Assembly (NCBI RefSeq): GCF_026210795.1
Contig: NC_089442.1
Span: forward strand, 124,001 to 188,000
Length of the DNA: 64,000 nucleotides
Direction of reading: 5' to 3'
Source of the DNA: Rhizophagus irregularis
Lineage: Eukaryota > Glomeromycota > Glomeromycetes > Glomerales > Glomeraceae
Part shown: positions 5,135-46,340 of the stretch, piece after piece
Layout: every line of letters starts with the position of its first letter
Position numbering within the stretch: the first letter of the stretch is position 1
Program-made: the position numbers and the translations under genes
The notes under the pieces: generated by a model
Seen by the model: only the letters and a program-made list of their open reading frames with translations
What the model was told of the DNA's origin: nothing
Databases searched by the model: none

Positions 5135-5747
5135 TATATAAATTTTTAAAATTTATATTAATATATATATTGTATATATTATACAAGAATCCCGAATAAT
5201 ATATATAAAGGTAGGTTTTGAGTTTGCTTAACCAACATATAAAAATTTTTCCTATGTGAGATTTATTATTGCTTATTTGATAACATAATTTTTAAATAGT
5301 CAGATATAATTATGCGTAGCAGAGTATTAAATTATTAATAGTCAGATATATATTTGCGTAGCAGGATAGAATTTTTTAATATATATATATAATATAATAT
5401 ATATTTACATTTTCACATTAAAAAAATCTAATAAAATATGTAAACAAAGTTATAAACATGTTTGTATAAAAAAAATTTACTATTTTTAATATAAAGAATA
5501 AGTTAATTGTATACATAATACAGGAAACATTTTTAGACGTAAAAGTATCAGACTTGATCCTTCTGGAGGTATCATCTTGACCCGCTATATGCACGTTATC
5601 GATCACATATATTTTACAATACTCCATGAATAGGATTGACAACGTGCATGTAGGAAGGTTAAGTTAGCACCGCATTACGGGTCAAATTAATACCTTTTGC
5701 TTTTTAGACGTGATTGTGTAGCAAAAGATATTAACTTGACTTGCGAC

Positions 5748-8700
5748 TAATGATACCGGGCGAAATTGAAATATTTCGTCATGTGACAAAACTGAAATAT
5801 ATTCGGCATTCCATTTTAAATTTCAAAATTCCGAATATTTCGTCATATGACAAAATTAATAATATAGGTACAATGAAGATCTTTAGATGTTAGATCTGAT
5901 TTGATCGATTATATAGCAGTTACACGAAGAAAAATAAAAAAAACGTCCCGTCCTGAGTTCGTTTACCTTGTCAATAGTTATGTAATGATAAATTAGTAAT
6001 CACTTTAACACAATCATTTTATTCATTTAAGTATTTTAACACAATTCCCCCTAAATTTCGTCAGCTATATATTGGTAATGTCGCCATTATCGCATTACTT
6101 GTGTACTCCCGTTTTAATTTTTTGTATTTTCGCGTTATTGTAATAAAAATTAAAATGAATTCTCAGCAAAAAGAAAAAAAGCCCAGTGATCGTTCTCAGA
6201 GCGAAGTGTGGAAGCATTTTGAAAAAAAACCTCTCAAGTCCGCCGGTCATTTTTCAGCTAAATGTAATTATTGTAAAACTTTTTGGGCTTGTGGTCACCC
6301 ACAACAATTAGAAGAACATTTAGCTAATAACTGCAAAGAGTGTCCAGAATTAGTCTATGCATTTTATTTGGGTGTAGTTTCTTCACGAGATTTTGGAAGT
6401 GAAGATGCCTCTATTCCTTCACCAGAAAATAATAAAAAAAGAAAAATTCAGGTGGAACAACGAGAGTTAACTGATTGGTTCGAGTCTGCCAAAATAACTC
6501 CTCAAAAAGAAGCTTCCATCACTCGGGCTCTCGTGTGCGCATTTACGTGTTGTGGGATATCATTTTCAATTATTGAAAACCCATTTTTTATTGAATTTCT
6601 TCATGAAATGAGACCAGGATATGTGCCGCCTTCATGTGAATTGCTTAGTGGTAGATTTTTAAATCAAGAAACGGCAAGAATTAATAAAAAGGTTAAGAAA
6701 ATTATCGAAGATTCTGAGAATCTAACGCTTGGTAAGCTTATTTTTTAAATATATTTTTATTGTTTTAATAATTTATAATTTATTAATTATTCATTTAATT
6801 CTTTAACTCTATAAAGCGATTGATGGATGGACTAGTCTGAGTGGCGCTTCCATTTATAATTACATAATTTTAACACCTGATCGTGAACAATATCTTTACT
6901 CCCTTAATGATTATTCAAGTGATTATCATACGGGAGAGTTTCTAGCAAGCGAGATTACTAATATTATTGGAAAAATTGGTTCCGAAAAAATAACTGCATT
7001 AGTTACTGATAATGCTGCAAATTGTATTAAAGCACGAGAAATAGTTATAAGCCAATTTTCCAATATTATTGATCTTCGATGTATCGCACATTTTATAAAT
7101 TTAATAACTAAACAAATAATGGGTATGCTTTAAGAATATTAATATATTATGATTTTTATTTAATTAATTTTTATACCAAGTATTTATTAATTTTTTAGGG
7201 CATGATATGGCTAAACAAACAATTAAAAGTTGCAATCGAATTATATCATTCTTTAAACAGTCTCATATAGTAGGAAAATTATTGGCTGATGCTGCTACTA
7301 CGTTACAAATTGAAGGTGGAGGTCTTAAAACTTATTCTGAAACAAGGTGGACATCTATGTATGAAGCTGCAAATTCAGTTTCACGTTTACAAATTGCATT
7401 AGAACATGTAAGTCTATTTATTTTCAACTTTATCAATTATAATTGCTTAAATTTAAAAATAATTAATAAATATTATATTTACAGGTGTTGATGAATAATC
7501 CTGATGAGATTACAAATAAATCAGTTAAAAGAAGTATTAAAGGCTCAGAATTTTTTGTGAATGTTAACAAGTTAACCAAAGTCCTAAAGCCCATTAAAAC
7601 CGCAATCACCTTACTTGAAGGTGCAAGTACAAATCTTGCCGATTATTTTATTCAATTGATTTTACTAGCGAATGCTATTAAAAAATTACCATCTCAAGAA
7701 ATGGTAGGATTTCATCAACATTGTATCGAGTCATTTAATAAATATTGGGATAAGTTTGATCCAAATATATATATCTTATCGTATTTTTTACATCCTAATT
7801 ATCGAGGTTAGTAAATTTATTATTTTCAACTGAAGTACTAAACGAATTTTCATTAAATAAATTACTAACAAATTATTTATTAATTTTTTTCTAATAGGAC
7901 AAGGATTAAAAACAGAATATTGGAAAATTATAACCACTACTGCAGCGCAGGTCAAATTTGGCGAAATAATGGTGGTGATAAAAAGTTATGTAACCGTCTT
8001 TTAGCACAAATCCGCAACTATGAGTTGAGACGTAGTCCGTATAATCAAGATTTTGATAACAGTCTTGAAACACCAATGAGTTGGTGGTATTCAATCAAAG
8101 ACAAATATGATTATCTTAAAGATTTAGCAATAATGATATTTTCTATTACTCCACATAGTGCAGGATGCGAGAGGATTTTTTCTACTCTTAGTTGGTTATA
8201 TGGCAAGAGAAGGCAACGTTTGGATCTTTCAACAATTGAGTCAATGGCAAAAATTCGTTCATATTATTTGTCTAATATGAAGAATGAGCTTACTTATACT
8301 AGTCAACAATATACAAATGAAGAATTATACGAAATGATTAATAATTCAACATTTTTACAATTTGAAGAAGAGGATGATAAGGTTGATAATAGGATAAGAT
8401 CACCTACTTTAGAGATTCCTAATTATGAAGTTCGGGTTTTAATTATTGAGAATTATTTTGATTTGAAAGATACAGTAAAAGGGTTAAATAACAATGATAA
8501 AAATTCAGATGATAGCGATGTTGAAAGTGATAGTGATAGCGATGTTGGTAGTGACATTGATAGTGAGAATTTAAATGATAGTGCTAATAATAATAGTGAA
8601 AATGAAACGGAAAGTGATTATGATGTTGAAGAACTAGTTCAACAACATTTGTTAGACGACGATTTAATTGGAAATACCACTTTCAAATTGTGTATTTTGA

Positions 8701-8935
8701 TAAAATAGTTTTATATCGATATTGCAAATTGTAATACATTAATAAAATAAATGATTGGTATATAAAAATAAAGTAAATGACTAATTTAGTTAGTTTAACA
8801 TAATTATTATATTTCGTCATTTCGGATATTAAATCGGATTTCGGAAAGGGTTTCAGATTCAGAATAAGTTTAGGATTTTAGATAAAAATCTGAAATATTT
8901 CAGATTATAAAAAACAATTTCGCCCGGCATCATTA
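5748..8935 (+). mobile_element. hAT DNA transposon with 8-bp target duplication
   Basis: The left terminus is TAATGATACCGGGCGAAATT. The right terminus, reverse-complemented, is TAATGATGCCGGGCGAAATT, so 19 of 20 positions are identical. An exact 8-bp direct repeat CTTGCGAC flanks it (5740-5747 and 8936-8943). Inside is a BED-finger hAT transposase gene on the plus strand. Length is 3188 bp. The exact target duplication and near-perfect ends suggest fairly recent movement, but the transposase frame appears broken, so it may depend on another copy. Confidence 0.9.
6155..8708 (+). CDS. hAT transposase (BED finger), probably frame-broken
   Basis: This would cut and paste the surrounding element using an RNase H-like catalytic core. 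Five exons fit canonical GT-AG joins with matching phases: 6155-6731, 6817-7122, 7199-7407, 7485-7806 and from 7900 on. The first exon encodes a BED-type zinc finger (VWKHFEKK, then CNYC, H and C at about residues 37-60). The second encodes the hAT core (DGWTSLSGAS, LVTDNAANC, RCIAHFINLI). The last carries the dimerisation region (ITPHSAGCERIFSTLSWLYG, KRRQRLDLSTIESM) and an Asp/Glu/Ser-rich tail. The upstream in-frame Met at 6101 is less likely than 6155, which directly precedes the charged finger leader. In exon 5 the frame of GQGLKTEYWK runs into a stop and the conserved IWRN...LLAQIRNYEL continues one frame over, so a one-base indel lies near 7950. Skipping to an internal acceptor at about 7950 would restore frame but drop conserved residues. 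Confidence 0.8.
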
Positions 8936-8943
8936 CTTGCGAC

Positions 8944-9429
8944 GCAGTGCTAACTTGACCCTTTCACATGCATGTTGTCAATCCTATTCATGAAGTATTG
9001 TAAAATATATGTGATCGACAATGTGCATGCAGCGGGTTAAGATGACACTCCCAGAAGGATCAAGTCCGATACTTTTGCAATCGTGTAATGTGTTTTTGAT
9101 AAAACAAATACGCGTTCACATAACATTAAAATTATAAATCATATACGTGTTCATGTAACATTTAAAAAATATATATTTAAAATGAGAGCAACGGGTGGGT
9201 GGGAAGGGAAAAATAAGTGGTTTTCTGTTTTTTTATAATTTTACACTATAATTTTTGTAATAATCAATAAAAGTTATTTCATTTTTACTTAGAAAATTTT
9301 TTAAAAATATTTTTTTTGACAAATTTTACAGTAAATTTTAAAAATAAAAATTCCGCATATTGGTGGCGTTACAAAAAACATAAATAAATCCATAAATATC
9401 TATTCAATCATGATATAAATTTATATGTA
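8944..9429. other. Right arm of palindromic MITE, then AT-rich spacer
   Basis: 8944-9077 completes the split palindrome. 9078-9429 has a GGGTGGGTGGGAAGGG run near 9196 and otherwise AT-rich sequence without a recognisable gene. Confidence 0.5.
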
Positions 9430-11169: not shown

Positions 11170-12400
11170 AGTCGTACGAACATTAACGAAATTATGAAGT
11201 ACATACCTTCAGTCCTTTTACACTGCTACGTTGATAGCATGCGTTAAATTCATTTCTGCATCAACGAATATTACAAGATCAAAAGTTAGACCAACAGTTA
11301 TCATTATGCGTGATTATTAATATTTTTTATAAAAAAAAAAGTAAACTTACGAACATTAACGAAATTGTGAGGTACATACCTTCCACTCCTTCTACACTAT
11401 TACGTTGAGAACATGCGTTAAATTCATCTCTACATCAAACAAACATTACAAGTTCAAAAAGTTGGACCAAACAGTTGTGATTATTATTAAAAAGTCGTAA
11501 ACATACGAACATTAACGAAATTAAGGAATACATACCTTCCATCCCTTCTACACTATTACGTTGGGAGCACGCGTTAACTTTATTTCTACAAGTTCAAAAG
11601 GTTAAACCAACAGTTTCAATATGCGTGATTATTAATATTTTTTATAAAAAAGACGTAAACATACGAACATTAACGAAATCGTGAAGTACATACCTTCCAT
11701 TCCTTCTACACTACTACGTTGAGAGCGTTAAATTCATTTCTGCATCAACGAATATTCAAGTTCAATAATTGGGCCAACAGTTGTCATTTTATGTGATTAT
11801 TAATATTTTATAAAAAAGACGTAAACATACGAACATTAACGAAATTATAAAGTACAAATACCTTCCATTCCTTCTACACTACTACATTGAAAGCACGTGT
11901 TAACTTTATTTCTACAAGTTCAAAAAGTTAAACCAACAGTTCATTATGCGTGATTATTAATATTTTTTATAAAAAAGACGTAAACACATTAACGAAATTA
12001 CAAAGTACAAATACCTTCCATTCCTTCTACACTACTACATTGAGAGCACGCGTTAATTTTATTTTTACTTTATAAGTTCAAAAGTTAGACCAACAGTTAT
12101 AATTATTAATATTGTATAAAATAGTTAAATTATGGAGTATAAATACTTTCCATACCTTTACCATTATATTGTACGCAAAACTTTCCATGAACAATTATTA
12201 ATATTATGAAATAGTCGTAAACCTACGAATATTAATGAAATTATGAAATATAAATAACTTCCATACTTCTACTATATTGAAAGTACGCGTTCATTTTTCC
12301 AGCAGCTGTTGCAAAGCTTTTTCATGTATAATTTATTAATATTATAAATATTCATAAAGCCTATGAATATATATAAATACTTTCCATGATACTTCTGCTA
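11170..12400 (-). repeat. Array of about seven 150-175-bp units with exon-like core
   Basis: Units begin with ACGAACATTAACGAAAT on the plus strand (about 11176, 11350, 11508, 11663, 11829, 11990, 12225). On the minus strand most units contain a 49-50-nt block bordered by an AG acceptor and a GTATGTA(C/T) or GTATTTG donor. The best frame of the block is open and similar between units (NEFNACYQRSSVKGLK, DEFNACSQRNSVEGVE, NKVNACSQRNSVEGME). One unit has lost the frame by a small deletion and the last ones fade. Block length is not a multiple of three, so serial splicing of all units would shift frame. Confidence 0.75.
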
Positions 12401-12844: not shown

Positions 12845-13066
12845 ATGAATTTTAACAAAATTGATAAATTTTGTGCGATCAAATTCAAAATAATTTTGTG
12901 TTTCATGGATAAAAATTCTTTTATTTGTTTAACAGTTATCAGCCAAATGAGAAAAACTCAAATTAATAAATTTTATATACAAATTAATCGCAAAAACATA
13001 AAATTCACCAGTCCTGCCACACCAATAAAAAAAAAATATCTTATGCATACAATAAAATTCACCTTA

Positions 13067-14240
13067 TTATACATCATCATCTTCATCTTCAGTTTCATTT
13101 CCGCTTTCTTCTTCCTCATAGCTATTATCTTCAAAATCGGAATATCTTATGCCCGTTTGACTGTTGATTTTTTTCTTTAAAGAATAATATGATTAGCCAT
13201 GAAATGATATTTTATTAAATGCTACTACAAAATTACAAACTTACTAAAAATTTTTTAACTTTTTGTTTCATGATATTCTTTTTACACCTTATTTCGTCAT
13301 GATTTGGGTTTAAAATTGTTGAGCAGATCGCAAGAACATATGCAAGTTCTGCATTAGAATGGTCATTTTGGAGGGCTCTGTCAATAACGCTTGCTAAAAC
13401 AATCGAAGAATTTTTGTCCTTGGGATTCATTTTTTTGAACAGGCCTTCAAAACAATCTTTAACTTCGGGTTTTCTCTCCCACTTTGCTACTTCAGACGGC
13501 CCGGCATTTGTGTTTATAGGTGGTAAACGGGATCCGAATATAGAAAAAATAGCACCATCTTGATTTCGAGGACAATGTTCCTCTTACGGACCGATACTTG
13601 TTTTGTTAACTTTACAAAGAAAGTTAATACTTAATATTTTATTTTATTTTATTAAACATTTTGTTATCGAATAAGGACTTACTTGTTTATGTATATTCTC
13701 GTTGTAATACGTGATCCAATCGTCTTCAGTAAAATTAGAGAAAAAACTCGCATGGTTCAGTACTAAATATCCTTCAATCAAAATAATTAGAACGTAAATA
13801 AATAATAAAATTAAATATTTCAAAGATATTCCTACCACTATGAATGATTCTTTAACGCTTGATGACAAATTTATTTTATCAGAAAGTAAATTTTTTAATT
13901 CGGATTTAAAATCGTGTATTTCTTTACTTAAAGTATCGATTTTATTTTCAATCTTTGTTAATCGATCTACCATAATTACAATAAATATTAATTACAAGAT
14001 AATTTTATTAATTTCTTAAATATTTGCGAATACCTTCAATTTTTGAATTTACAGGAAGCCATCTCTTAGTCTGAAGAACGTTAACTTCGTCATTGATGGT
14101 TTCGCTGGTGTTGATGTTGGTTTTACTGTTGTTGTTTCTGCTTCGGCTTGGCTTCTATCACTGCGCTTGTGATTCCCTTCGATTAGCAATTCCTCAATTT
14201 TCTTACGAGAGGATTCTCTCAATTTATTTCCTGATTCCAT
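13067..14240 (-). pseudogene. Array gene copy 1, broken
   Basis: This aligns with copies 2-4 along its length but carries several lesions. Exon 1 (14034-14240) is one base shorter: near 14148 a run of As in the Ser/Arg segment has lost one, so the frame changes after residue about 31. Exons 2 and 3 are fused by a deletion that removes the intron end and the first half of exon 3, including the VSIYPTKDE motif. Exon 4 has an extra base in the region of SSKSREAIFS (about 13553) and another near 13590. Exon 5 (13067-13174) still encodes the acidic tail. The gene cannot make the family protein. Its position at the downstream edge of the array fits an old copy left to decay. Confidence 0.85.
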
Positions 14241-14339
14241 AATGATACTTTTGAAAAATGGGATTTCTTACAATTTAAGAAAAAAAAATATTTCTGAAGA
14301 AAAAAAATTGACCATTATTTATGAAAAAAAAAAACTCTT

Positions 14340-15110
14340 TAACAATTTTTCGTACCAGTCATTAACAGAAACTTTCGAATACTCAATAATTACATCATGC
14401 AAATTTTCGTACCAGTCATTAAGCAGAACCGCAGAAACTTTCTTAGTAATAATTATGTCAGTCGAGGAAATAAAAACAAATGCACGTGAACATAAGGATA
14501 AATCGCATAATTACTCATTATTCTAAACCAGGAAATTTTTTCGTACAATTCGCATAATTACTCATTATTCTAAACCAAGCAAAAAAACTTTCTTAGTAAT
14601 AATTATGTCAGTTGAGGAAATAAAAACACGCACGTGAACATAAGGATAATTTCGATTACTTACTCATTATTCTAAACCAGGCGTACCAGTCATTAAAGCA
14701 GTAACCGCAGAAACCTTCGAATATTCAATAATTATATCACTTTATATGGAAATAAATAATTACGCGTGAACATGAGTTTTTTCCTTGTTATTATTATGGA
14801 TAGAACCGCATGATTTCGATACTTACTCATTATACTAAACCAAGCAATTTTTCGTACAAGTCATTAAAGTAGAATCCGCAGGAACCTTGAACCTTCGAAT
14901 ATTTAATAATTATATCATTGTTATATCATATATGGAAATAAAACATAAACACGTGAACATGAGTTTTATTATTATGGATAGAAATTCGCATGATTTCGAT
15001 ACTTACTCATTATACTAAACCAAGCAATTTTTCGTACAAGTCATTAAAGTAGAATTCGCAGGAACTGCAGAAACCTTCGCATACTTAGTAGTAATAATTA
15101 TGTCAGTCGT
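14340..15110. repeat. 5' block of smaller repeats, unit 1
   Basis: A reduced version of the block upstream of each array gene, with units sharing TCGTACCAGTCATTAA, CTTTCTTAGTAATAATTATG and TTACTCATTATTCTAAACCA. It is several hundred bases shorter than in units 2 and 3, which explains the shorter unit 1. Confidence 0.8.
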
Positions 15111-15760
15111 ATCTTACATGGAAACAAATAAACATTAAAGTTTTTCTTTGCACGATAAAAAATTTGTATAATTTCGAACATAAGCATGCATACACAGAAT
15201 AAAAAAATCTAATGATACCACTCCTGAGTGAAATAAAATTCAAACTCATTATATATTAGTCAGGGTTGTTTGATCAGCATTTTTGATATTAGTTGGTGTG
15301 ACCGATCAGACAATGAACTCCAGTCTAACCAATAAAAAATAGAACAATTTACGAATCAATTGTAACTATGAATTTTAACAAAATTACGATCAAATTCAAA
15401 ATAATTTTTTGTGTTTCATGTATAAAAATTCTTTTATTTGTTTAACAGTTATCAGCCAAATGAGAAAACTCAAATTAATAAAATTTTATATACAAATTAA
15501 TCGCAAAAACGTAAAATTTATTGATTTGTTTTTTGAAGGAGATGCTCTTTTAAATGATTATCAAATAAATGTAATTTATAAAATTTAGAAGAGTGGGGGC
15601 ATTTTTTTTTTGAAATTGTACATATCAATTACTAATTCGTAATATTTGTTATATTATTAATATATTCACCAGTTCTACCAAACCAATAAAAAAAAATAAT
15701 AAATTTATTAAAACAAATAAACATATATATAATTATCTTATGCATATAAAATTCACCTTA

Positions 15761-17033
15761 TTATACATCATCTTCTTCATCATCTTCAGTTTCATTTCCA
15801 CCTTCTTCTTCCTCATAGTTATTATCTTCAAAATCGGAATATTTTATGGCCGTTTGATTATTGATTTTTTCCTTTAAAGAATAATATGATTGATTAGCCA
15901 TGAAATGATATTTTATTAAATACTACTACAAAATTACAAACTTACTAAAAATTTTTTAACTTTTTGTTTCATGATATTCTTTTTCAACATTATTTCGTCA
16001 TGATGTGGGTTCAAAATTGTTGAGCAGGTCGCAAGAACATATGCAAGTTCTGCATTAGAATTGCCACCTTGGAGGACTCTGTCAATAACGCTTGCTAAAA
16101 CAATCGAAGAATTTTTGTCTTTGGGATTCATTTTTTTGAACAGGCCTTCAAAACAATCTTTAACTTCGGATTTTCTCTTCCATTTTGCTACTTCAGACGG
16201 CCCGGCATTTGTGTTTATAGGTGGTAAACGGGATCCGAATATAGAAAAAATAGCCTCCATTGATTTCGAGGACAATGTTCTTCTTATGGACCGTACTTGT
16301 TTTGTTAACTTTACGAAGAAAGTTAATACTTAATATTTTATTTTATTTTATTAAACATTTTGTTATCGAATAAGGACTTACTTGTTTATGTATATTCTCG
16401 TTATAATACGCGATCCAATCGTCTTCAGTAAAATTAGAGAAAAAACTCGCATGGTTCAGTATTAAATATCCTTCAACCGCTCCATAACATTCATCTTTTG
16501 TTGGGTAAATTGATACTTTTATTAATAATTTCGAAACATTTTTCACAACATCCTAAAATTAGTCGAAATTCAAAATAATTAGAATGTAAATAAATAATAA
16601 AACTAAATATTTCAAAGATATTCCTACCGCTATGAATGATTCTTTAACGCTTGATGACAAATTTATTTTATCAGAAAGTAAAGTTTTTAACTCGGATTTA
16701 AACTCGTGTATTTCTTTACTTAAAGTATCGATTTTATTTTCAATCTTTGTTAATCGATCTACCATAATTACAATAAATATTAATTACAAGATAATTTTAT
16801 TAATTTCTTAAATATTTGCGAATACCTTCAATTTTTGAATTTGCAGGAAGCCATCTCTTAGTTTGAAGAACGCTAACTTCGTCATTAATGGTTTCGTTGG
16901 TGTTGATGTTGGTTTTACTGCTGTTGTTTCTGCTTCGGCTTTGGCTTCTATCACTGCGCTTATGATTCCCTTCGATTAGCAATTCCTCAATTTTCTTACG
17001 AGAGGACTCTCTCAATTTATTTCCTGATTCCAT
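15761..17033 (-). CDS. Array gene copy 2, unknown family, five exons
   Basis: I do not recognise the family. Exons by splice signals and frame: 17033-16826, 16758-16628, 16552-16382, 16308-15946 and 15871-15761, all GT-AG with matching phases (1,0,0,0), giving 327 residues. Residues 1-69 are basic and Ser/Arg-rich (KRSDRSQSRSRNN), which suggests nuclear location or nucleic-acid contact. Residues 70-113 form a heptad-like coiled coil (DRLTKIENKIDTLSKEI). Residues 114-170 contain VSIYPTKDE. Residues 171-291 are a probable helical domain with SIFGSRLPPINTN, KWKRK and SVIDRVLQ, ending KKFL. The tail is acidic (SDFEDNNYEEEE). The start is the only Met giving the conserved exon 1. There are no membrane segments or signal peptide. 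The coiled coil implies self-association (inference). Confidence 0.75.
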
Positions 17034-17139
17034 AATGATACTTTTGAAAAAGTGGGATTTCTTACAATTTAAGAAAAAAAAATATTTCTGAAGGAAAAAA
17101 ATTGACCATTATTTATGAAAAAAAAAACTCTTTAAACCC

Positions 17140-18175
17140 AAATCAAGCAATTTTTCGTACCAGTCATTAACAGAAACTTTCGAATATTCAATAATTACAT
17201 CATGCAAATTTTCGTACCAGTCATTAAGCAGAACCGCAGAAACTCTCTTAGTAATAATTATGTCAGTTGAGGAAATAAAAACATATACACATGAACATAA
17301 GGATAAATTCGCATAATTACTCATTATTCTAAACCAGGAAAAGAAACTTTCTTAGTAATAATTATGTCAGACGAGGAAATAAAAACAAATGCACGTGAAC
17401 ATAAGGATAAATCGCATAATTACTCATTATTCTAAACCAGGAAATTTTTTCGTACAATTCGCATAATTACTCATTATTCTAAACCAAGCAAAGAAACTTT
17501 CTTAGTAATAATTATGTCAGTTGAGGAAATAAAAACAAATGCACGTGAACATAAGGATAAATTCACATAATTTCGATTACTTACTCATTATTCTAAACCA
17601 GGTAATTTTTTCGTACCAGTCATTAAAGTAGAACCGCAGAAACTTTCTTAGTAATAATTATGTCAGTTGAGGAAATAAAAACACGCACGTGAACATAAGG
17701 ATAATTTCGATTACTTACTCATTATTCTAAACCAGGCGTACCAGTCATTAAAGCAGTAACCGCAGAAACCTTCGAATATTCAATAATTATATCACTTTAT
17801 ATGGAAATAAATAATTACGCGTGAACATGAGTTTTTTCCTTGTTATTATTATGGATAGAACCGCATGATTTCGATACTTACTCATTATACTAAACCAAGC
17901 AATTTTTCGTACAAGTCATTAAAGTAGAATCCGCAGGAACCTTGAACCTTCGAATATTTAATAATTATATCATTGTTATATCATATATGGAAATAAAACA
18001 TAAACACGTGAACATGAGTTTTATTATTATGGATAGAAATTCGCATGATTTCGATACTTACTCATTATACTAAACCAAGCAATTTTTCGTACAAGTCATT
18101 AAAGTAGAATTCGCAGGAACTGCAGAAACCTTCGCATACTTAGTAGTAATAATTATGTCAGTCGTATCTTACATG
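17140..18175. repeat. 5' block of smaller repeats, unit 2
   Basis: Lies upstream of copy 2 on its minus strand. Subunits of about 110-150 bp share TCGTACCAGTCATTAA, AACTTTCTTAGTAATAATTA, GAACATAAGGATAAATTC and TTACTCATTATTCTAAACCA. On the minus strand the last word is followed by GTAAGTAATCG or GTAAGTATCG, which look like splice donors. The block may hold the promoter and 5' untranslated exons (inference). Confidence 0.85.
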
Positions 18176-18763
18176 GAAACAATAAAAATTAAAGTTTTTC
18201 TTTGTACGATAAAAAATTTATATAATTTCGAAAACATAAGCATGCATACACATTATAAAAAATCTAATGATACACTCCTGAGTGAAATAAAATTCCAACT
18301 CATTATATATTAGTCAGGGTTGTTTGATCAGCATTTTTTGATCACGAATTTATTAGTTGGTGTGACCGATCAGACAATGAACTCCAGTCTAACCAATAAA
18401 AAATAGAACAATTTTACACATTCAATTGTAACTATGAATTTTAACAAAATTGCGATCAAATTCAAAATAATTTTTTGTGTTTCATGTATAAAAATTCTTT
18501 ATTGTTTAACAGTTATCAGTCAAATGAGAAAAACTCAAATTAATAAAATTTTATATACAAATTAATCGCAAAAACGTAAAATTTATTGATTTGTTTTTTG
18601 AAGGAGATGCTCTTTTAAATGACATATCAATTACTAATTCGTAATATTATATTATTAATATGAATTCACCAGTCCTGCCAAACCAATAAAAAAAAATAAT
18701 AAATTTATTAAAACAAATAAACATATATATAATTATCTTATGCATATAATAAAATTCACCTTA

Positions 18764-20029
18764 TTATACATCATCTTCTTCATCATCTTCAGTTTCATTT
18801 CCACTTTCTTCTTCCTCATAGCTATTATCTTCAAAATCGGAATAAATTATGACCGTTTGACTATTGATTTTTTTCTTTAAAGATAATATGATTAGCCATG
18901 AAATCTTATTTTATTAAATACTACTATAAAATTACAAACTTACTAAAAATTTTTTAACTTTTTGTTTCATGATATTCTTTTTCAACATTATTTCGTCATG
19001 ATTTGGGTTCAAAATTGTTGAGCAGATCGCAAGAACATATGCAAGTTCTGCATTAGAATGGCCATTTTGGAGGACTTTGTCAATAACGCTTGCTAAAACA
19101 ATCGAAGAATTTTTGTCTTTGGGATTCATTTTTTTGAACAAGCCTTCAAAACAACTTTTAACCTCGGGTTTTCTTTTCCATTTTGCAATTTCAGACGGCC
19201 CGGCATTTGTGTTTATAGGTGGTAAACGGGATCCGAATATAGAAAAAATAGCCTCCCTCGATTTCGAGGACAATGTTCCTCTTACGGACCGTACTTGTTT
19301 TGTTAACTACGAAGAAAGTTAATACTTAATATTTTATTTTATTTTATTAAACATTTTGTTATCGAATAAGGACTTACTTGTTTATGTATATTATCGTTGT
19401 AAAACGCGATCCAATCGTCTTCAGTAAAATTAGAGAAAAAACTCGCATGGTTCAGTGATAAATATCCTTCAACCGCTCCACAACATTCATCTTTTGTTGG
19501 GTAAATTGATACTTTTATTAATAATTTCGAAACATTTTTCACAACATCCTAAAATTAGTCGAAATTCAAAATAATTAGAATGTAAATAAATAATAAAATT
19601 AAATATTTCAAAGATATTTTTACCGCTATGAATGATTCTTTAACGCTTGATGACAAATTTATTTTATCAGAAAGTAAAGTTTTTAACTCGGATTTAAACT
19701 CTTGTATTTCTTTACTTAAAGTATCGATTTTATTTTCAATCTTTGTTAATCGATCTACCATAATTACAATAAATATTAATTACAAGATAATTTTATTAAT
19801 TTCTTAAATATTTGCGAATACCTTCAATTTTTGAATTTGCAGGAAGCCATCTCTTAGTTTGAAGAACGCTAACTTCGTCATTAATGGTTTCGTTGGTGTT
19901 GATGTTGGTTTTACTGCTGTTGTTTCTGCTTCGGCTTTGGCTTCTATCACTGCGCTTATGATTCCCTTCGATTAGCAATTCCTCAATTTTCTTACGAGAG
20001 GACTCTCTCAATTTATTTCCTGATTCCAT
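18764..20029 (-). CDS. Array gene copy 3, unknown family, five exons
   Basis: Exons 20029-19822, 19754-19624, 19548-19378, 19306-18944 and 18874-18764 follow the same splice sites and phases as copy 2 and give 327 residues. Exon 1 has the same residues as copy 2. Differences are few and mostly conservative (for example HEFKSELK to QEFKSELK, VAKWKRK to IAKWKRK, NEN to NDN). The whole unit including non-coding DNA is nearly the same as unit 2, so this is a recent duplication. No frame break is visible. Function is unknown; the domain layout is basic N-terminus, coiled coil, helical domain and acidic tail. Confidence 0.75.
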
Positions 20030-20129
20030 AATGATACTTTTGAAAAAGTGGGATTTCTTACAATTTAAGAAAAAAAAATATTTCTGAAGGAAAAAAATTG
20101 ACCATTATTTATGAAAAAAAAAAACTCTT

Positions 20130-21180
20130 TAAACCCAAATCAAGCAATTTTTCGTACCAGTCATTAACAGAAACTTTCGAATATTCAATAATTACATCAT
20201 GCAAATTTTCGTACCAGTCATTAAGCAGAACCGCAGAAACTCTCTTAGTAATAATTATGTCAGTTGAGGAAATAAAAACATATACACATGAACATAAGGA
20301 TAAATTCGCATAATTACTCATTATTCTAAACCAGGAAAAGAAACTTTCTTAGTAATAATTATGTCAGACGAGGAAATAAAAACAAATGCACGTGAACATA
20401 AGGATAAATCGCATAATTACTCATTATTCTAAACCAGGAAATTTTTTCGTACAATTCGCATAATTACTCATTATTCTAAACCAAGCAAAGAAACTTTCTT
20501 AGTAATAATTATGTCAGTTGAGGAAATAAAAACAAATGCACGTGAACATAAGGATAAATTCACATAATTTCGATTACTTACTCATTATTCTAAACCAGGT
20601 AATTTTTTCGTACCAGTCATTAAAGTAGAACCGCAGAAACTTTCTTAGTAATAATTATGTCAGTTGAGGAAATAAAAACACGCACGTGAACATAAGGATA
20701 ATTTCGATTACTTGCTCATTATTCTAAACCAGGCGTACCAGTCATTAAAGCAGTAACCGCAGAAACCTTCGAATATTCAATAATTATATCACTTTATATG
20801 GAAATAAATAATTACGCGTGAACATGAGTTTTTCCTTGTTATTATTATGGATAGAACCGCATGATTTCGATACTTACTCATTATACTAAACCAAGCAATT
20901 TTTCGACAAGTCATTAAAGTAGAATCCGCAGGAACCTTGAACCTTCGAATATTTAATAATTATATCATTGTTATATCATATATGGAAATAAAACATAAAC
21001 ACGTGAACATGAGTTTTATTATTATGGATAGAAATTCGCATGATTTCGATACTTACTCATTATACTAGTAAACCAAGCAATTTTTCGTACAAGTCATTAA
21101 AGTAGAATTCGCAGGAACTGCAGAAACCTTCGCATACTTAGTAGTAATAATTATGTAAGTCGTATCTTACATGGAAACAA
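20130..21180. repeat. 5' block of smaller repeats, unit 3
   Basis: Almost the same sequence as the block of unit 2, with single-base changes (for example TTACTTGCTC for TTACTTACTC near 20712). Confidence 0.85.
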
Positions 21181-21803
21181 TAAACATTAAAGTTTTTCTT
21201 TGTACGATAAAAAATTTATATAATTTCGAAAACATAAGCATGCATACACATTATAAAAAATCTAATGATACACTCCTGAGTGAAATAAAATTCCAACTCA
21301 TTATATATTAGTCAGGGTTGTTTGATCAGCATTTTTTGATCACGAATTTATTAGTTGGTGTGACCGATCAGACAATGAACTCCAGTCTAACCAATAAAAA
21401 ATAGAACAATTTTACACATTCAATTGTAACTATGAATTTTAACAAAATTGCGATCAAATTCAAAATAATTTTTTGTGTTTCATGTATAAAAATTCTTTTA
21501 TTGTTTAACAGTTATCAGCCAAATGAGAAAAACTCATATTAATAAAATTATATATATAAATTAATCGCAAAAACGTAAAATTTATTGATTTGTTTTTGTT
21601 TTTTGAAGAGAGATGCTCTTTTAAATGATTATCAAATAAATTTAATTTATAAAATTTAGAGGAGTGGGGGTATTTTTTTTTTTGAAATTGTACATATCAA
21701 TTACTAATTCGTAATATTATATATATTATTAATATATTCACCAGTCCTGCCAAACCAATAAAAAAAATAATAAATTTATTAAAACAAATAAACATATATA
21801 TAA

Positions 21804-23120
21804 TTATCTTATGCATATAATAAAATTCACCTTATTATACATCATCACATCATCATCTTCATCATCTTCAGTTTCATTTCCACTTTCTTCTTCCTCATAG
21901 CTATTATCTTCAAAATCAGAATAATTTATGCCCGTTTGATTATTGATTTTTTTCTTTAAAGAATAATATGATTGATTAGCCATGAAATGATATTTTATTA
22001 AATACTACTACAAAATTACAAACTTACTAAAAATTTTTTAACTTTTTGTTTCATGATATTCTTTTTCAACATTATTTCGTCATGATTTGGGTTCAAAATT
22101 GTTGAGCAGATCGCAAGAACATATGCGATTTCTGCATTAGAATGGTCATTTTGGAGGACTCTGTCAATAACGCTCACTAAAACAATCGAAGAATTTTTGT
22201 CCTTGGGATTCATCTTTGTAAACAGGCTTTCATAACAACTTTTAACCTCGGGTTTTCTTTTCCATTTTGCAATTTCAGACGGCCCGGCATTTGTGTTTAT
22301 AGGTGGTAAACGGGATCCGAATATAGAAAAAATAGCCTCCCTTGATTTCGAGGACAATGTTCCTCTTACGGACCGTACTTGTTTTGTTAACTACGAAGAA
22401 AGTTAATACTTAATATTTTATTTTATTTTATTAAACATTTTGTTACTATCGAATAAGGACTTACTTGTTTATGTATATTCTCGTTGTAAAACGAGATCCA
22501 ATCGTCTTCAGTAAAATTAGAGAAAAAACTCGCATGGTTCAGTGATAAATATCCTTCAACCGCTCCACAACATTCATCTTTTGTTGGGTAAATCGATACT
22601 TTTATTAATAATTTCGAAACATTTTTCACAACATCCTAAAATTAGTCGAAATTCAAAATAATTAGAATGTAAATAAATAATAAAACTAAATATTTCAAAG
22701 ATATTCTTACCGCTATGAATGATTCTTTAACGCTTGATGTCAAATTTATTTTATCAGAAAATAAAGTTTTTAACTCGGATTTAAACTCTTGTATTTCTTT
22801 ACTTAAAGTATCGATTTTATTTTCAATCTTTGTTAATCGATCTACCATAATTACAATAAATATTAATTAATTACAAGATAATTTTATTAATTTCTTAAAT
22901 ATTTGCGAATACCTTCAATTTTTGAATTTACAGGAAGCCATCTCTTAGTCTGAGTAATATAAATTTCGTCATTGATGGTTTCGTTGGTGTTGATGTTGGT
23001 TTTACTGCTGTTGCTTCTGCTTCTGCTTCGGCCTCTATCACTGCGCTTATGATTCCCTTCGATTAGCAATTCCTCAATTTTCTTACGAGAGGATTCTCTC
23101 AATTTATTTCCTGATTCCAT
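21804..23120 (-). CDS. Array gene copy 4, altered C-terminus, five exons
   Basis: Exons 23120-22913, 22841-22711, 22635-22465, 22390-22028 and 21953-21804 use the family splice sites; total 340 residues. It differs more from copies 2 and 3 than they do from each other: SRSRSNSSK for SRSRNNSSK, EIYITQTKRW for EVSVLQTKRW, CYESLFTKM for CFEGLFKKM. In exon 5 an extra 8 bp in the ATC-repeat near 21843 shifts the last codons, so the acidic run continues and the protein ends DVMMYNKVNFIICIR, 13 residues beyond its sisters. The core frame is intact. Function is unknown. Confidence 0.75.
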
Positions 23121-23229
23121 AATGATACTTTTGAAAAATGGGATTTCTTACAATTTAAGAAAAAAAGAAATATTTCTGAAGAAAAAAAAATTGGTCCTTA
23201 TTTATGAAAAAAAAAACTCTTTAACCCCA

Positions 23230-24190
23230 AATCAAGCAATTTTTCGTACCAGTCATTAACAGAAACTTTCGAATACTCAATAATTACATCATGCAAATTT
23301 TCGTACCAGTCATTAAGCAGAACCGCAGAAACTCTCTTAGTAATAATTATGTCAGTTGAGGAAATAAAAACATATACACATGAACATAAGGATAAATTCG
23401 CATAATTACTCATTATTCTAAACCAGGAAAAGAAACTTTCTTAGTAATAATTATGTCAGTCGAGGAAATAAAAACACATGCACGTGAACATAGGCATAAT
23501 TACTCATTATTCTAAACCAGGCAAAGAAACTTTCTTAGTAATAATTATGTCAGTTGAGGAAATAAAACCAAATGCACGTGAACATAAGGATAAATTCACA
23601 TAATTTCGATTACTTACTCATTATTCTAAACCAGGTAATTTTTTCGTACCAGTCATTAAAGTAGAACCGCAGAAACTTTCTTAGTAATAATTATGTCAGT
23701 TGAGGAAATAAAAACACGCACGTGAACATAAGGATAATTTCGATTACTTACTCATTATTCTAAAACCAGGCGTACCAGTCATTAAAGCAGTAACCGCAGA
23801 AACCTTCGAATATTCGATAATTATATCACTTTATATGGAACATGAGTTTTTTCCTTGTTATTATTATGGATAGAACCGCATGATTTCGATACTTACTCAT
23901 TATACTAAACCAAGCAATTTTTCGACAAGTCATTAAAGTAGAATCCGCAGGAACCTTGAACCTTCGAATATTTAATAATTATATCATTGTTATATCATAT
24001 ATGGAAATAAAACATAAACACGTGAACATGAGTTTTATTATTATGGATAGAAATTCGCATGATTTCGATACTTACTCATTATACTAAACCAAGCAATTTT
24101 TCGTACAAGTCATTAAAGTAGAATTCGCAGGAACTGCAGAAACCTTCGCATACTTAGTAGTAATAATTATGTCAGTCGTATCTTACATGG
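23230..24190. repeat. 5' block of smaller repeats, unit 4
   Basis: Same words as in units 2 and 3 with one internal subunit less and small deletions (for example the ATAAATAATTACGCGTGAAC piece near 23840 is missing). Confidence 0.85.
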
Positions 24191-24557
24191 AAACAATAAA
24201 CATTAAAGTTTTTCTTTGTACGATAAAAAATTTATATAATTTCGAAAACATAAGCATGCATACACATTATAAAAAATCTAATGATACCACTCCTGAGTGA
24301 AATAAAATTCCAACTCATTATATATTAGTCAGGGTTGTTTGATCAGCATTTTTTGATCACGAATTTATTAGTTGGTGTAACCGATCAGACATGAACAGTC
24401 TAACCAATAAAAATGGAACAATTTACGCATTCAACCGTAACTTTACGGAAATCCATAAAACTTACCTTATCAAAAAAGGAAAAGTAATAGTCATATTTTA
24501 GATCAGTAACGTTATACAAGATATTAGTATCGCTGTCGTTAAATATAATAAACTTTA

Positions 24558-27500
24558 TTAAAATATGTATTTATTTACAAAATATTCATTTGTTTTATTA
24601 AACCGGGGTACTATATGTACGATATCTTGTATTGCTTCTATATCAATAAAGTTATAGATTTCCGTAATTTCTAGTAAGGGACACCCATAAAGATGTGGTT
24701 GATTTTGAAATTTGAAGTCATACCACTGAATTAATGCGAGATTTAATGGAATATTTTGATTCTTAAGTTCTATTTTCGCTATTAATAAAACCTTAATTTA
24801 AAAAATCATTTTTAAATTAGCAATATTATATAAATATGTAGTATCAAATCAATTAAAAAATTACCTGCCCGTAACAAATGCCTTGATCAGAAGCGTAATC
24901 AAATAATTCATCAGAATTCATACGAACAGACACATTACTATACCAAGGTCTGCCATAATAACTGTTAGTAGCACGCATTATTGCACCATTTTCTATTATA
25001 ACTGATCTGTATATTGTCACTTGGCTTTCATTTGCAATACTTTCGTGATCCATATACAGATTTAAACATTCCAAAAAATTGTCAAATCCAGATCTCATTT
25101 TGTGGTCTATATTAGCCTGTTCTACAAAAAAATCATGGGCATCTTTTAATAGAAATTCGAAAAGTATTGCTGTAAATTTAAATATACGAGGGATAGTAGC
25201 TGAATTTGGTAATCGATGGGTTATATTTGTTATTGATTGTCGCCGAATCTATAAAAATTAATTTTTTTTAGAAATTTAACATAGTATTGTGTATTTTATA
25301 TAAATAATACTTGCTATTTTCATTATTTGAACTTCAATATTTTTTTTATTACTTAATCGGTAGGGATTCTTAACGTATTCTTTGTGAAGGCTTTCGTAAG
25401 TCTCCGTAGTGTATCCATTAACTGCACCAAATGATCGAATCGAATCAATTATATGATATGCCCACGAATGCAGTTTTGGTAATTTTAACTCCGAGGGGAC
25501 ATACATTGGAGAATTTTTATGAACATTTGAGACCAATTGTTTATAGATTCCTGAAATTATAATTTTAAGTATTAGTGGACAGCGTTGTTTTATAATAATT
25601 ATGTAGTACATACCCTAAATTTGGCCAAATCACTTTCTTTGAAATTTTCATATCGACTAATTGCATACATTTCATTCCAAGCTTCGTAAAGTTTTGCCAG
25701 ATCTTCATTCTTTACAAAATTTTCATCATCCTCATTATTTACAAACAAATTGTCCACTACAAAAACCATTACTTTCATCAGATTGCGATACTCATTAGCT
25801 GTTAATCTGGCTATTGATTGTATGCCATTTGTAAAGATCTTCAAACCGGGAAATCTTGGTATTGCGGCTAATCGATGATCTACTTCATCAACTAAAGTTT
25901 TGCCACATTGCGCCCCTAAAAGTTTTTTCGTATAATCGATTTGATAATGAAAGAGGCCTAAATCGAGATGATGCATTCTATCAGGCACTGTGGCTTGATA
26001 GATATTTATATTACTTAATATAAATTAATAAAAATAAACTCATGTTAGTGTAATGCTTGTAATGCTTACGTGATTTGGCGAAATGGCTGGATGCCTAACA
26101 AATATTATGTAAACTTACGGCAGATTCCAAAAAAAATTAGATATATTTTCAATGCAAACGGAATTTCCCGAGTTTTGATTAAAATACTGCTGCATATTAA
26201 CATGAGTTCGTGGTGTTATATCATCAATTTGTAAATTAAGATCAGCAAGATTGTCTCTTGTGACTAGACAAAAATGACAAGGATGTTTCGACATTGGTGA
26301 TTTGTATGTAAGACAGTACGTTGCAGCTTCCGGCCAGTCAGATATTATAGCTGAAACTCTAGGATAAAACCAAATCATTTCGTTATTTAAAAATAGATCA
26401 ATGCCATTTTTATTTAATTTTAATAAAGGGTCTAGTAACAATTCCAAAGATTTATGGAAGCATTCGCGAACAGCAATCTTAAATGTTTCAGACTTCCTTT
26501 CAGTAATATTATTAGATTTTAAGATCGGCAGATACGCTAATAATTGCTTTGCATCTTTCTTATTACGCCTCCAATTTTTAATATTACCAATAGACAAGTA
26601 AATGGGATGGAGTTGACTTTTTCCTAGTGTGTCAACATTTGTAGCGTCAGAATATAATATTAAAGATAAAAGCCTGGCACCAGGTGGCAGAGATTTTTCC
26701 GCATTTTCCCACCATATCCCAGTATTTTGTTCGCTAAACTCCCTTTCACCGTTATGCTTTAAGTTTATATGAAGATTAGTAAATATCCTATAATATTAAG
26801 TTGTATATTTCATACGAAAGTATAAAATAATTACCTCAACTTTCTCAAAAGTTAACGCAAAATTTTGTGATATGTCCGAAATTGACAAAATATTTTTTAT
26901 ACAGTTTATTAAAGACTGATGATAAAGAAAATACTCATTATTATTATAATTCATTATACTAGTTTTAGTATAATTTAAATTTGGTAGTTTCATATTATCC
27001 ATATATTTGCGGCCTTGTTCGATAGATCTTGGAAGAGGTGATTTATCTAAATTTGCATGTTTATTAAAGAATTTAATTATAGCATTTCCTGTCGCATTGT
27101 TAAGTTTATGTTTCGTAACTAATGCCATTAAATCACCATATGCTTCACTTGGGTAATTAACATTAATTTCTGGTTTGGATTCTTCTTCATTCAATTCTGA
27201 ATCAGAATCTTCCAAGATATTTTCAAAGACATTTTCATTTTCATCGTGGTCTATTTCTTCTATATTTTGATCAATTTCACCAACCTCTGAAATTGACATC
27301 ATACTTTGAAAACTCTGATTATTTATTTCCGAGTCTGTACTTTTATTATCAGAAAGATCTTCGCATGAATCTTCACGGACCATCTATAAAATTAATTATG
27401 TTAAAAAAGAAATTCAAAAAATTTTATAATTTCCTATTTTCTTTACCTCGATATCATGATTATTAGTTTTATGTTCAAATTCTTCTAATTCTTCACTATC

Positions 27501-29210: not shown

Positions 29211-30598
29211 ATGGACAAAAATAATAATAATAAAAAAAAAAAAACACTGAAACAGTCGAGCATGTAGACAAACGGAGAAAAACCGACGAATCTTCCGATG
29301 AATTAATTAATGGTTGGTTAAATTATATATTTTTGAAAAATAAAAATAATTATTACTAATATATTATTATTTATATTATTTATATTCTACTGTTATAAAG
29401 AAGCTTTAACGAAAATATTGCGCCAGAATACAAAAATTTTATCCAAACTGGATATAATTATTTCCAACCAAAAGGCTTTAGAAAACAGAGTATCGAAAGT
29501 AGAAGAATCGGTCGATAAAAATAATGATAGTAATCAAGGGGATGAAGAATATATAAAGGTAAGACCCAAAAATACAAATATTTACGTAAATCAGTGGTTG
29601 AACATTTAGTAGTAATTCCTCATTAAATCATTATATTCTTGATTATAGAAAATAATCAAAGAAGTTGCTAAAAAGTTACTTGAAGCTTCAATATATCCTA
29701 CCCCCGATGAACCGAGAGTTCACTAATAATTATATGAATGAAAACTACGATGATTTTATTAAACGGTTTAAAAGATATGATAAATGGATTATATTTTATG
29801 AAAAAAACATTGCTTCTCCCGTAAGTTTTTGAGAAATTACGATTTTACATTAATTTATTGAAATTTAAATTTAAAATCTTTTTCTTTAGCTTCTAGCTAA
29901 ACATCGTAGTCCTAGGGTTCTTTAGCTTCTAAAGTGAAAGACATAATGTATGTCGTTTTTAAAGAATTTAACCTTCCCACAATCCCTGCCGTAAACACGG
30001 CATTAAAGGAAAGCGAAATAAGAAAATGGAAAGGGAGCCCAGCCGTGAAAAATTGTTACGGTAATTTATTCAAAAAAATCAAGAATCCGGATCCAGAGAC
30101 ATATATGTCGAGAATCCTCCAAATACTTAAAGGCAAAAATCAATTATCTAATATGCAAATTGCATATGCAATAAGTATTTGTGAAATTATTTTAAATCCG
30201 AAAAATTTACATATTCAGGTTACAGAATCTGTCATAAAACCCGTTTTAACGAAGAATTTGGTAAGCATTAGAAATTTGAATAAATAGTAATATTTAAAAA
30301 CTAATTTTGTTTTACTTCTTAGAAAAAAATTACAAGTAAGGATAATTATTCATATTCCGATAATGACGAAATAGAAGCTTCCCGAGAAGCTGAAGAGACA
30401 AACAAAGGAGTTGATGAAGCAGCAGAAGTTGATGAAGCAGAAGAAGTAGCTGACGAAGCAGAAGAAGTATTACAAGAAGAGGAAGAAAACGAGATAAGAG
30501 AAGAAGACGAGGAGGAAGGCGGAAGAATTTATATAAGTAGTACGGATGAAGAGACAAAAGAAAGAATGAGGCGATTAAAAAAACAATATAAAAAATAA
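29211..30598 (+). pseudogene. Diverged, broken relative of the array gene
   Basis: Same plan as the array genes but on the other strand. Exons are about 29211-29312, 29401-29558, 29649-29820, 29890-30260 and 30323-30598, with the same phases (1,0,0,0). Exon 1 has a KRRKTDESSDE basic segment. Exon 2 is a coiled coil (SKLDIIISNQKALENRVSKV). Exon 3 has ASIYPTPDE, matching VSIYPTKDE. Exon 4 has IRKWKG, VKNCYGNLFKKI and MQIAYAISICEIILNPKN, matching IAKWKRK, VKSCYESLF and IAYVLAICSTILNPNH. Exon 5 starts KKI and is a long Glu-rich tail ending LKKQYKK. Breaks: a poly-A run at 29232-29244 one base out of frame, a shift near 29722, and another in the first 50 bases of exon 4. It is either a relic or affected by sequencing slips. 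Confidence 0.75.
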
Positions 30599-31199
30599 AA
30601 TAATAATTGACTACGCATATATTTTTTATATTTTAATATCCCCCCATATATTTTAATATCCCATTTATTTTAATAAAGGAGATAATTTTAAATAAATACA
30701 TGTTCGGGTAAAATATATTTGATCATTATGTAGTTGGCCACTTTATTTTGTGTAAATGTGAAATATTACGATTGTAATAAATAAGAATGATTATTTTAGA
30801 AACTTGAATTACCAGATGAGATAAGTTACGTAGCGTAATATAAGTTATTGAATTTATTACAGAATATTTCGACCGTAACGCTTCAAAATAGCCCCTGTTC
30901 ATTTCCGGTCGATCGCATTTTTCGGTGTACAACGCAACCATTTTCTGAACTTTTAGCCCATTTTGAATACCAAAAACAACCAACCAAAATTAGATAATTT
31001 CTGTTTACGTGATATTTAAGAAAAAGACATAAGTTATAATTTCCTTTTTAATCCTAACAAAATCAGTTACAGGAAATACAAGGAGTTTGAACTAAATTTC
31101 AATCTAAAGCAGTTCAATTTGCGATCGAAAATAAAAAAATTTTATTGGATAATTTTTGTACAACAAAATCCGACCGAAAAATGTACCCGACCGGAAATG
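30599..31199. repeat. Spacer with inverted repeat around the minisatellite edge
   Basis: 30862-30945 and 31160-31230 are inverted relatives, sharing CGACCGGAAATGAACAGGG, CCGAAAAATG and the GTTGTAC word. This suggests that a foldback structure starts the following minisatellite. Otherwise no gene. Confidence 0.6.
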
Positions 31200-32810
31200 A
31201 ACAGGGCTAATATTTACGATCACGTATTATTACGAAATATTTCGATCGTAATGTTTCGAAACATTTACGATCACGTATTATTACGGAATATTTCGATCGT
31301 AATGTTTCGAAACATTTACGATCACGTATTATTACGGAATATTTTGATCGTAATGTTTCGAAACATTTACGATCACGTATTATTATGGAATATTTCGATC
31401 GTAATGCTTCAAGGAACATTTACGATATCGTAATTTAATGGAATATTTTGACTGTAATGTTTGAAACATTTCACGATATCGTAATTACTGCGAATATTTT
31501 GACGTAATGTTTGAAACGCATTTGCGATCCACGTATTATTGCAGGTGTTCGATCATAATGTTTGAAACATTTGCGATCATGTATTGTGCGAATATTTGTC
31601 GTAATGCTTGAGCATTTACGATGCTCGTAGTAATTGCGGAATATTTTGTAGTAATGTTTGAAACATTTGCGATATGCGTAATTCTGCGGAATATTTTGGC
31701 CGTAATGTTTGAAACATTTGCGATCCGCGTATTAATACTTGAGGAATGTTGTCGTAATGCTTGAGCATTTGCGATGCTCGTAATTACTGCGGAATATTTT
31801 GGCTAGTAATGTTTTGAAACATTTGCGATCACGTAATACGAGGAATATTTTGGCCGTAATGTTTGAAACGCATTTGCGATCACGTATTGTGCGGAATATT
31901 TACGTCGTAATGCTTGAACATTGTCATCATCTACAAATTTGTCGTAATGTTTAGCATTCACGATCTGCAATATTAATACGAATATTTGTCGTAATGCTTG
32001 GAACAATTGCGATATATTATTGTAAGAATATTTTGATGTGTACTTGAACATTTGCGATCACGTACTAATACGGAATATTTGTCGTAATGTTTGAAGCATT
32101 TGCGATCACGTGGCCAATACGAATATTTTGACATATCTTTGAGCATTGTCCGTATTATTAAGTGCTTCGTCGTAATGTTTAGTAATGCGATAAAATATTA
32201 TGCGAATATTTTGGCCGTAATGCTTGAACGCATTTGCGATCACGTATTATTGGAATATTCGTCGTAATGCTTGAGCATTCGTCGCGTAGTAATACGGAAT
32301 ATTTACGTCGTAATGTTTGAAACATTTGCGATCCCATTATTGGCTCTGGAATATTTCGATTCGTAATGTGAACATTTACGATCACGTATTATTACGAATA
32401 TTTCGATCGTAATGTTTCGAAACATTTGCGATCACGTATTAGGAATATTTTGACCGTAATGCTTTAGTGCGTTGCGATGCTTGTGTATACACGGAATATT
32501 TCGATCGTAATGCTTGAACATTTACGTCACGTATTGTGCAGATATTTGATCGTAATGTTTCGAAACATTTACGATCGCGTATTATTACGGAATATTTCGT
32601 CATTATTTGAGCATTTCGTATGCGTGTGTACGAATATTTCGATCGTAATGTTTCGAAACGTTTGCGATCACGTATGTGTACGGAATATTTTGACCGTAAT
32701 GTGAACGTTTACGATCACGTATTATTTGAATATTTCGATCGTAATGCTTCAGAACATTTACGATCCCGTATTATTTCGGAATATTTCGATCGTAAAATTC
32801 GTAGACAAAA
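31200..32810. repeat. 57-bp dyad minisatellite, about 28 units
   Basis: The unit is built from TTTACGATCACGTATTATTA, CGGAATATTTCGATCGTAA and TGTTTCGAAACA. Both ATTTCGATCGTAA and TGTTTCGAAACA contain perfect dyads. Units at 31205-31420 and 32380-32800 are clean; those at 31430-32370 are ragged, with missing letters. Open frames on both strands here are by-products of the repeat. Confidence 0.9.

Positions 32811-46309: not shown

Positions 46310-46340
<31 letters not shown>

What the first reader, a model, noticed from the sequence alone, without database searches (positions are those of the whole stretch)
12845..24432. Tandem array of an unrecognised, intron-rich gene family
Four direct units of about 3 kb each carry the same five-exon gene encoding a basic SR-like N-terminus, coiled coil, helical domain and acidic tail. 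Units 2 and 3 are nearly the same even outside exons, unit 4 is more diverged and unit 1 is dead, so the array is still turning over. I recognise no domain. A multi-copy, lineage-specific coiled-coil protein in a transposon-rich setting is a good candidate for an undescribed family.
Basis: partly seen in the sequence, partly recalled or inferred. Interest (0 to 1): 0.72.

Follow-up and report, generated by a model that had tools for sequence, protein, structure and literature searches.

The report
Tandem array of a fungal orphan gene
Four side-by-side copies (three intact, one broken) of a spliced gene with no recognised relative sit next to a transposon, with a fifth, much older and apparently damaged copy nearby; it is a real but unexplained gene family of a kind already reported in mycorrhizal fungi.

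Summary
Four direct ~3 kb units (12.87-24.44 kb) each carry one minus-strand five-exon gene. Units 2-4 splice with GT-AG introns of 67-75 nt to 327, 327 and 340 residues; unit 1 is broken. This supports the gene model without RNA-seq. No family matches above curated cut-offs, the collections searched (none fungal) gave no relative, and low-confidence helical models match no fold. Between units, exons differ more than the 5' spacer, dN/dS is 0.40-0.97, and indels are rarer in exons than introns: frames seem kept while the protein drifts. Best reading: a tandemly amplified orphan gene for a coiled-coil, perhaps nuclear, protein. Expanded orphan families and tandem arrays are documented in Rhizophagus (PMC8647823, passages), so this is a new member of a known kind. 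The organism is inferred, not shown.

The parts
13070..14240 (-). Unit 1 gene remnant (pseudogene; low end approximate): frame breaks in exons 1 and 4, 93-nt deletion from intron 2 into exon 3
15761..17033 (-). Unit 2 gene, exons 16826-17033, 16628-16758, 16382-16552, 15946-16308, 15761-15871; 327 aa
   Evidence: GT-AG introns 67, 75, 73, 74 nt
18764..20029 (-). Unit 3 gene, exons 19822-20029, 19624-19754, 19378-19548, 18944-19306, 18764-18874; 327 aa
   Evidence: GT-AG introns 67, 75, 71, 69 nt
21804..23120 (-). Unit 4 gene, exons 22913-23120, 22711-22841, 22465-22635, 22028-22390, 21804-21953; 340 aa, altered C-terminal end
   Evidence: GT-AG introns 71, 75, 74, 74 nt
17034..18600 (.). 5' spacer of unit 2, with internal repeats of roughly 100-180 bp; equivalent spacers lie above the ATG of units 1, 3 and 4, the last ending near 24442
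29212..30598 (+). Unit 5: diverged inverted paralog with the same five-exon layout (E2 29401-29558, E3 29649-29820, E4 29916-30260, E5 30323-30598) and probable frame breaks in exon 1 (A-run) and exon 3
24853..27383 (-). Plavaka-type transposase gene fragments between the array and unit 5 (context, not shown to belong to the family)
   Evidence: Pfam PF18759 E=3.8e-15 on 26118-26597; frames

Best explanation
This is a tandemly amplified protein-coding gene of an orphan family in an AT-rich, transposon-rich fungal genome, most likely an arbuscular mycorrhizal fungus. Shown here: four direct copies, a fifth diverged copy with the same intron phases, three intact spliced frames, a heptad-patterned segment and a charge-polarised protein. 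Inferred: the array grows and homogenises by unequal crossing-over and gene conversion between copies; the protein is nuclear (basic N-terminus), oligomerises through the coiled coil, binds a partner through the helical exon 3-4 region, and uses its acidic tail as a disordered charged contact. I put about 0.9 on 'real spliced gene family', 0.7 on 'cellular orphan gene rather than TE gene' and 0.35 on the nuclear-adaptor role.
For: Repeat structure. Gene models with GT-AG introns. Fifth copy: tblastn E=6.6e-15, and an exon-3 profile built without it hits it in two frames (E=4.9e-5 and 0.0092); intron phases 1,0,0,0 as in the array. Frame kept: 1 distinct indel in 984 exon nt vs 5 in 287 intron nt among U2-U4 (counted), Fisher p=0.003 (test chosen after seeing the data). 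Mosaic site partitions. Heptad pattern: 0 of 2000 shuffles reach unit 3, 24 of 2000 reach unit 5. Charge +5/+6 at residues 1-67 and -11 to -14 from 292 on, no hydrophobic N-terminus. Kind known in Rhizophagus: passages of PMC8647823 and PMC6123716.
Against: dN/dS of 0.97, 0.59 and 0.40. Amino-acid change close to a neutral simulation: 22 observed vs mean 23.0 (5th percentile 19) for U2-U3; 36 vs 41.1 (36) for U2-U4; 22 vs 28.0 (23) for U3-U4, observed over the first 320 residues and simulated over the whole protein. Stop-free frames arise by chance in 1432, 522 and 1080 of 5000 simulations. Two of the five copies look broken. For U2-U3 alone the 5' spacer too has few indels (6 events, one at the alignment's end, in about 1570 nt). 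No domain supports nuclear function; structure models have low confidence (mean pLDDT 47.5 and 57.0).
Confidence: 0.6

Rival explanations
1. The gene is an accessory gene of a DNA transposon related to the adjacent Plavaka element, working like plant CACTA TnpA: a basic, dimerising protein that binds transposon ends. The array and unit 5 would be remnants of multiplied or nested elements.
For: A Plavaka transposase fragment lies between the array and unit 5; Plavaka transposases resemble EnSpm ones (PMC12730594, passages); the protein is basic at its N-terminus with a coiled coil. The role and build of TnpA are recalled; CACTA papers were seen only as a listing.
Against: In the flanks scanned (16-mers, up to 2 mismatches, at least 5 G/C), 0 inverted pairs bracket Plavaka, array plus Plavaka, or array plus Plavaka plus unit 5 (shuffled-control means 0.50, 0.45, 0.05); 1 pair around unit 5 alone (control mean 0.20, max 3). 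Head-to-tail units point to unequal crossing-over. blastn of a unit, unit 5 and the Plavaka stretch printed no match elsewhere in the 64 kb outside their own regions (dust filter on). No TE Pfam match for the protein.
Confidence: 0.15
2. The array is a non-functional, neutrally drifting duplicate cluster; open frames in units 2-4 only reflect recent copying.
For: dN/dS up to 0.97; stop-free frames are not improbable by chance and amino-acid change is near neutral; units 1 and 5 look broken.
Against: Indels are rarer in exons than introns (p=0.003); splice sites are intact in three copies; intron phases and layout survive in a 33%-identical paralog, so the ancestor was long functional.
Confidence: 0.2
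3. A secreted, host-directed effector family (SP7-like or Crinkler-like) diversified by duplication.
For: Multi-copy, exons more diverged than the 5' spacer, and a basic segment of nuclear type.
Against: No hydrophobic N-terminal segment (maximum 19-residue hydropathy in the first 40 residues -1.06); no Crinkler or other effector family among the Pfam matches. No signal-peptide predictor was available.
Confidence: 0.05

Closest known systems
High-copy orphan gene families of Rhizophagus irregularis (class B genes of Dallaire et al. 2021, PMC8647823; passages read)
   Same: No known domain, multi-copy; tandem arrays of expanded families reported; near TEs including CMC-EnSpm
   Different: The passages seen name no coiled-coil five-exon family; identity with any family catalogued there could not be tested
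CACTA/EnSpm TnpA-type accessory proteins (recalled)
   Same: Spliced gene, basic plus coiled-coil build, transposase alongside
   Different: No bracketing terminal repeats found, tandem rather than transposed copies, no sequence match
SR proteins (recalled)
   Same: A short Arg/Ser-containing basic stretch
   Different: No RRM match, only a few RS dipeptides; unit 5's N-terminus is Lys/Arg-rich without RS repeats

Membership tests
High-copy orphan (class B) gene of a mycorrhizal fungus | No known protein domain | tested here: met
   Unit 2 protein and unit 5 exon-4 frame: nothing above curated cut-offs in Pfam (best Tektin E=0.0032, 16.7 bits vs 34.3) or NCBIfam; PHROGs best E 0.01 and 0.0066; exon 4 of all five copies in Pfam: nothing. 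Full-length units 3 and 4 were not scanned
High-copy orphan (class B) gene of a mycorrhizal fungus | Multiple copies | tested here: met
   Five copies in the window; genome copy number not testable (no genome held)
High-copy orphan (class B) gene of a mycorrhizal fungus | Genome is a Glomeromycotina fungus | tested here: inconclusive
   AT-rich (2-kb windows 15-32% GC) with Plavaka, hAT, F-box and GMA12-type genes; consistent only
CACTA/Plavaka accessory gene | Lies inside inverted terminal repeats with the transposase | tested here: not met
   No inverted pairs above controls in the flanks scanned; degenerate, very short or more distant ends could be missed
SR protein | RRM domain plus long RS domain | tested here: not met
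   No RRM among Pfam matches; sequence shows few RS dipeptides
Secreted effector | N-terminal secretion signal | tested here: not met
   Hydropathy only; no signal-peptide predictor was available

The most novel reading that the evidence does not exclude
A new nuclear, self-associating protein family of mycorrhizal fungi in which recombination within a tandem array keeps reshuffling exon variants, so that exons diverge faster than the 5' spacer while reading frames stay open: a fungal counterpart of diversifying recognition gene clusters (for example self/non-self or TE-control factors).
Probability: 0.12. Interest if true: 0.65.

Novelty: new member of a known kind. Interest (0 to 1): 0.3.

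Why it matters
[quoted passage not shown] This locus gives a clean case: a gene model backed by a 33%-identical paralog, live and dead copies side by side, and a measurable exon-versus-spacer contrast. It would matter more if the exon excess proved to be diversifying selection.

Tried and rejected
Family searches: Pfam, NCBIfam, PHROGs and PDB sequences gave only weak matches, below the curated cut-offs where these exist, often to coiled coils such as Tektin. Related loci with the exon-4 alignment: viral contigs (91 pattern matches) and genome contigs (34) gave no confirmed relative; tblastn of the phage records with the unit 3 protein gave none. The plasmid and E. coli collections were not searched. 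The Plavaka fragment was also sought in viral contigs, mainly to place the organism; 5 pattern matches, none confirmed. Structure: exon 4 folded twice, with unit 2 and with unit 5 as query, helices only, mean pLDDT 47.5 and 57.0; Foldseek with the second model had 0 matches with E<=0.001 in PDB and in BFVD, and the model is too poor to interpret. Rfam: no match at gathering threshold.

Considered and dropped: a 15-bp inverted pair around unit 5 (28682/30730) as transposon ends; it is within shuffled controls. Positive selection as the sole cause of the exon excess: synonymous divergence is raised as well (dS 0.034-0.093); the exon-vs-intron contrast is significant in only 3 of 6 pairs (p=7.5e-6, 0.009, 0.0061; the others 0.43, 0.096, 0.24); the pairs share sequences; G/C sites differ more often than A/T sites in exons in each of the 6 pairs, so composition may add to the excess, though at A/T sites exons still exceed the 5' spacer in each of the 6 pairs; and the 3' flank is even more diverged than exons in 5 of 6 pairs.
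Full report
OBSERVATION. Repeat finding and self-BLAST show four direct units between about 12.87 and 24.44 kb. The genes lie on the minus strand with ATGs at 14240, 17033, 20029 and 23120. Units 2, 3 and 4 give complete five-exon models with GT-AG introns of 67-75 nt and phases 1, 0, 0, 0, coding for 327, 327 and 340 residues. Unit 4's longer tail follows from an 8-nt difference near its end. Unit 1 is broken: one 1-nt indel in exon 1, two in exon 4, and a 93-nt deletion from intron 2 into exon 3. The repeated unit includes a 5' spacer with its own internal repeats.

A FIFTH COPY. tblastn of the array protein against the whole window finds a further copy at about 29.2-30.6 kb, on the plus strand, E=6.6e-15. 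Its exon 4 is 33% identical to unit 2. It has the same order of basic N-terminus, heptad segment, exons 3-4 and acidic tail, and its introns fall at matching places and phases. An exon-3 profile built from units 2-4 only matches it in two frames (E=4.9e-5 and 0.0092), which marks a frame break; exon 1 seems to break in a run of A. I read it as a decayed paralog, though a sequencing slip in the A-run is possible. At this divergence a shared splice layout is strong evidence that the five-exon gene is real. A profile scan of stop-free stretches of 20 or more codons in six frames found no convincing sixth copy; outside the five copies the best hits had E from 0.17 to 0.64 (the exon-4 profile there included unit 5, so its hit to unit 5 is by construction).

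WHAT THE PROTEIN LOOKS LIKE. Net charge is +5 to +6 over residues 1-67 and -11 to -14 from residue 292 on; no stretch in the first 40 residues is hydrophobic. The heptad contrast of the segment around exon 2 beats all 2000 shuffles in unit 3 and all but 24 of 2000 in unit 5. No family matches above curated cut-offs, PHROGs and PDB give only weak hits, and no relative was confirmed in the viral, prokaryote or phage collections. None of these collections is fungal, so absence there says little about fungi. Exon 4 models contain only helices but have low confidence, and a fold search with the better one gave nothing.

HOW THE ARRAY EVOLVES. Exon differences are 32 of 984 sites (U2-U3), 58 of 984 (U2-U4) and 39 of 984 (U3-U4); in the 5' spacer they are 9 of 1565, 21 of 1315 and 22 of 1314; in introns 6 of 282, 1 of 287 and 5 of 282. 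A different, pairwise alignment of a slightly longer spacer stretch gave 33 of 1648, 14 of 1315 and 15 of 1314, so the U2-U3 contrast depends on the stretch taken. In one search the exon excess over the 5' spacer holds in all six pairs including unit 1 (p from 2.4e-8 to 9.3e-4; pairs not independent); over introns it is significant in three of six. The 3' flank is much more diverged in five of six pairs (58 of 234 in U2-U3; the exception is 12 of 231 in U2-U4). Site partitions change along the gene: in exon 1 five sites join units 2 and 3 against 1 and 4, in the first half of exon 4 six sites join 1+2 against 3+4. This is what exchange between copies would give. dN/dS is 0.97, 0.59 and 0.40, and amino-acid change is near a neutral simulation, at or below its 5th percentile for two of three pairs. 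Indels are rarer in exons (1 distinct event in 984 nt) than introns (5 in 287 nt), p=0.003, a test chosen after seeing the data. I conclude weak constraint on residues and stronger constraint on frame.

SETTING AND KIND. A Plavaka transposase fragment (PF18759, E=3.8e-15) lies between the array and unit 5, and a hAT-type gene lies at 6.1-8.7 kb (hAT dimerisation domain E=6.9e-8; BED finger below its cut-off). No inverted repeats above controls bracket the array, the transposase, or both, in the flanks scanned. The AT-rich sequence with these genes fits a Glomeromycotina fungus, but no tool could name the organism. In passages of Dallaire et al. [quoted passage not shown] Maeda et al. 2018 (PMC6123716, passages) report 92 rapidly expanded families, in several of which over 90% of genes lie with TEs, while others show none. 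Oliveira and Corradi 2024 (PMC11075540, passages) report Plavaka as particularly prevalent in several R. irregularis strains. Manley et al. 2023 (PMC10234402, passages and sections 19 and 21) describe a burst of lineage-restricted genes. The listings of my seven answered paper searches (most capped at 10-20 rows) showed no paper evidently describing this protein family; this is not proof that it is undescribed.

VERDICT. A real, spliced, tandemly amplified orphan gene family, five copies here with three intact. The nuclear-adaptor role is a guess from composition. It is a new member of a known kind, and the most unusual measurable point, exon excess over spacer, needs more copies to interpret.

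Noticed in passing
5551-9066: A hAT-type transposase gene (hAT dimerisation domain; sub-threshold BED finger) lies between 93-nt exactly matching inverted repeats, longer than I recall for typical hAT ends; suggests a young insertion.
   Followed up: partly
33840-34273: A ~430-bp MITE-like element with 40- and 45-nt exact inverted arms.
   Followed up: no
30893-31206: A ~310-bp stretch with 19-nt inverted ends just downstream of unit 5, possibly another MITE.
   Followed up: no
31209-32795: A ~1.6-kb satellite of ~51-bp units containing self-complementary AATGTTTCGAAACATT cores.
   Followed up: no
805-1660: About 17 copies of a 50-bp unit; the consensus holds a self-complementary GCCGGAA...TTCCGGC core.
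   Followed up: no
11175-12106: 158-bp tandem repeats less than 1 kb from the low-coordinate end of the array.
   Followed up: no
45167-46984, 54342-55367 and 60712-61302: An F-box-like protein, a GMA12/MNN10-type galactosyltransferase and a sub-threshold F-box-like match: ordinary cellular genes in the rest of the window.
   Followed up: no
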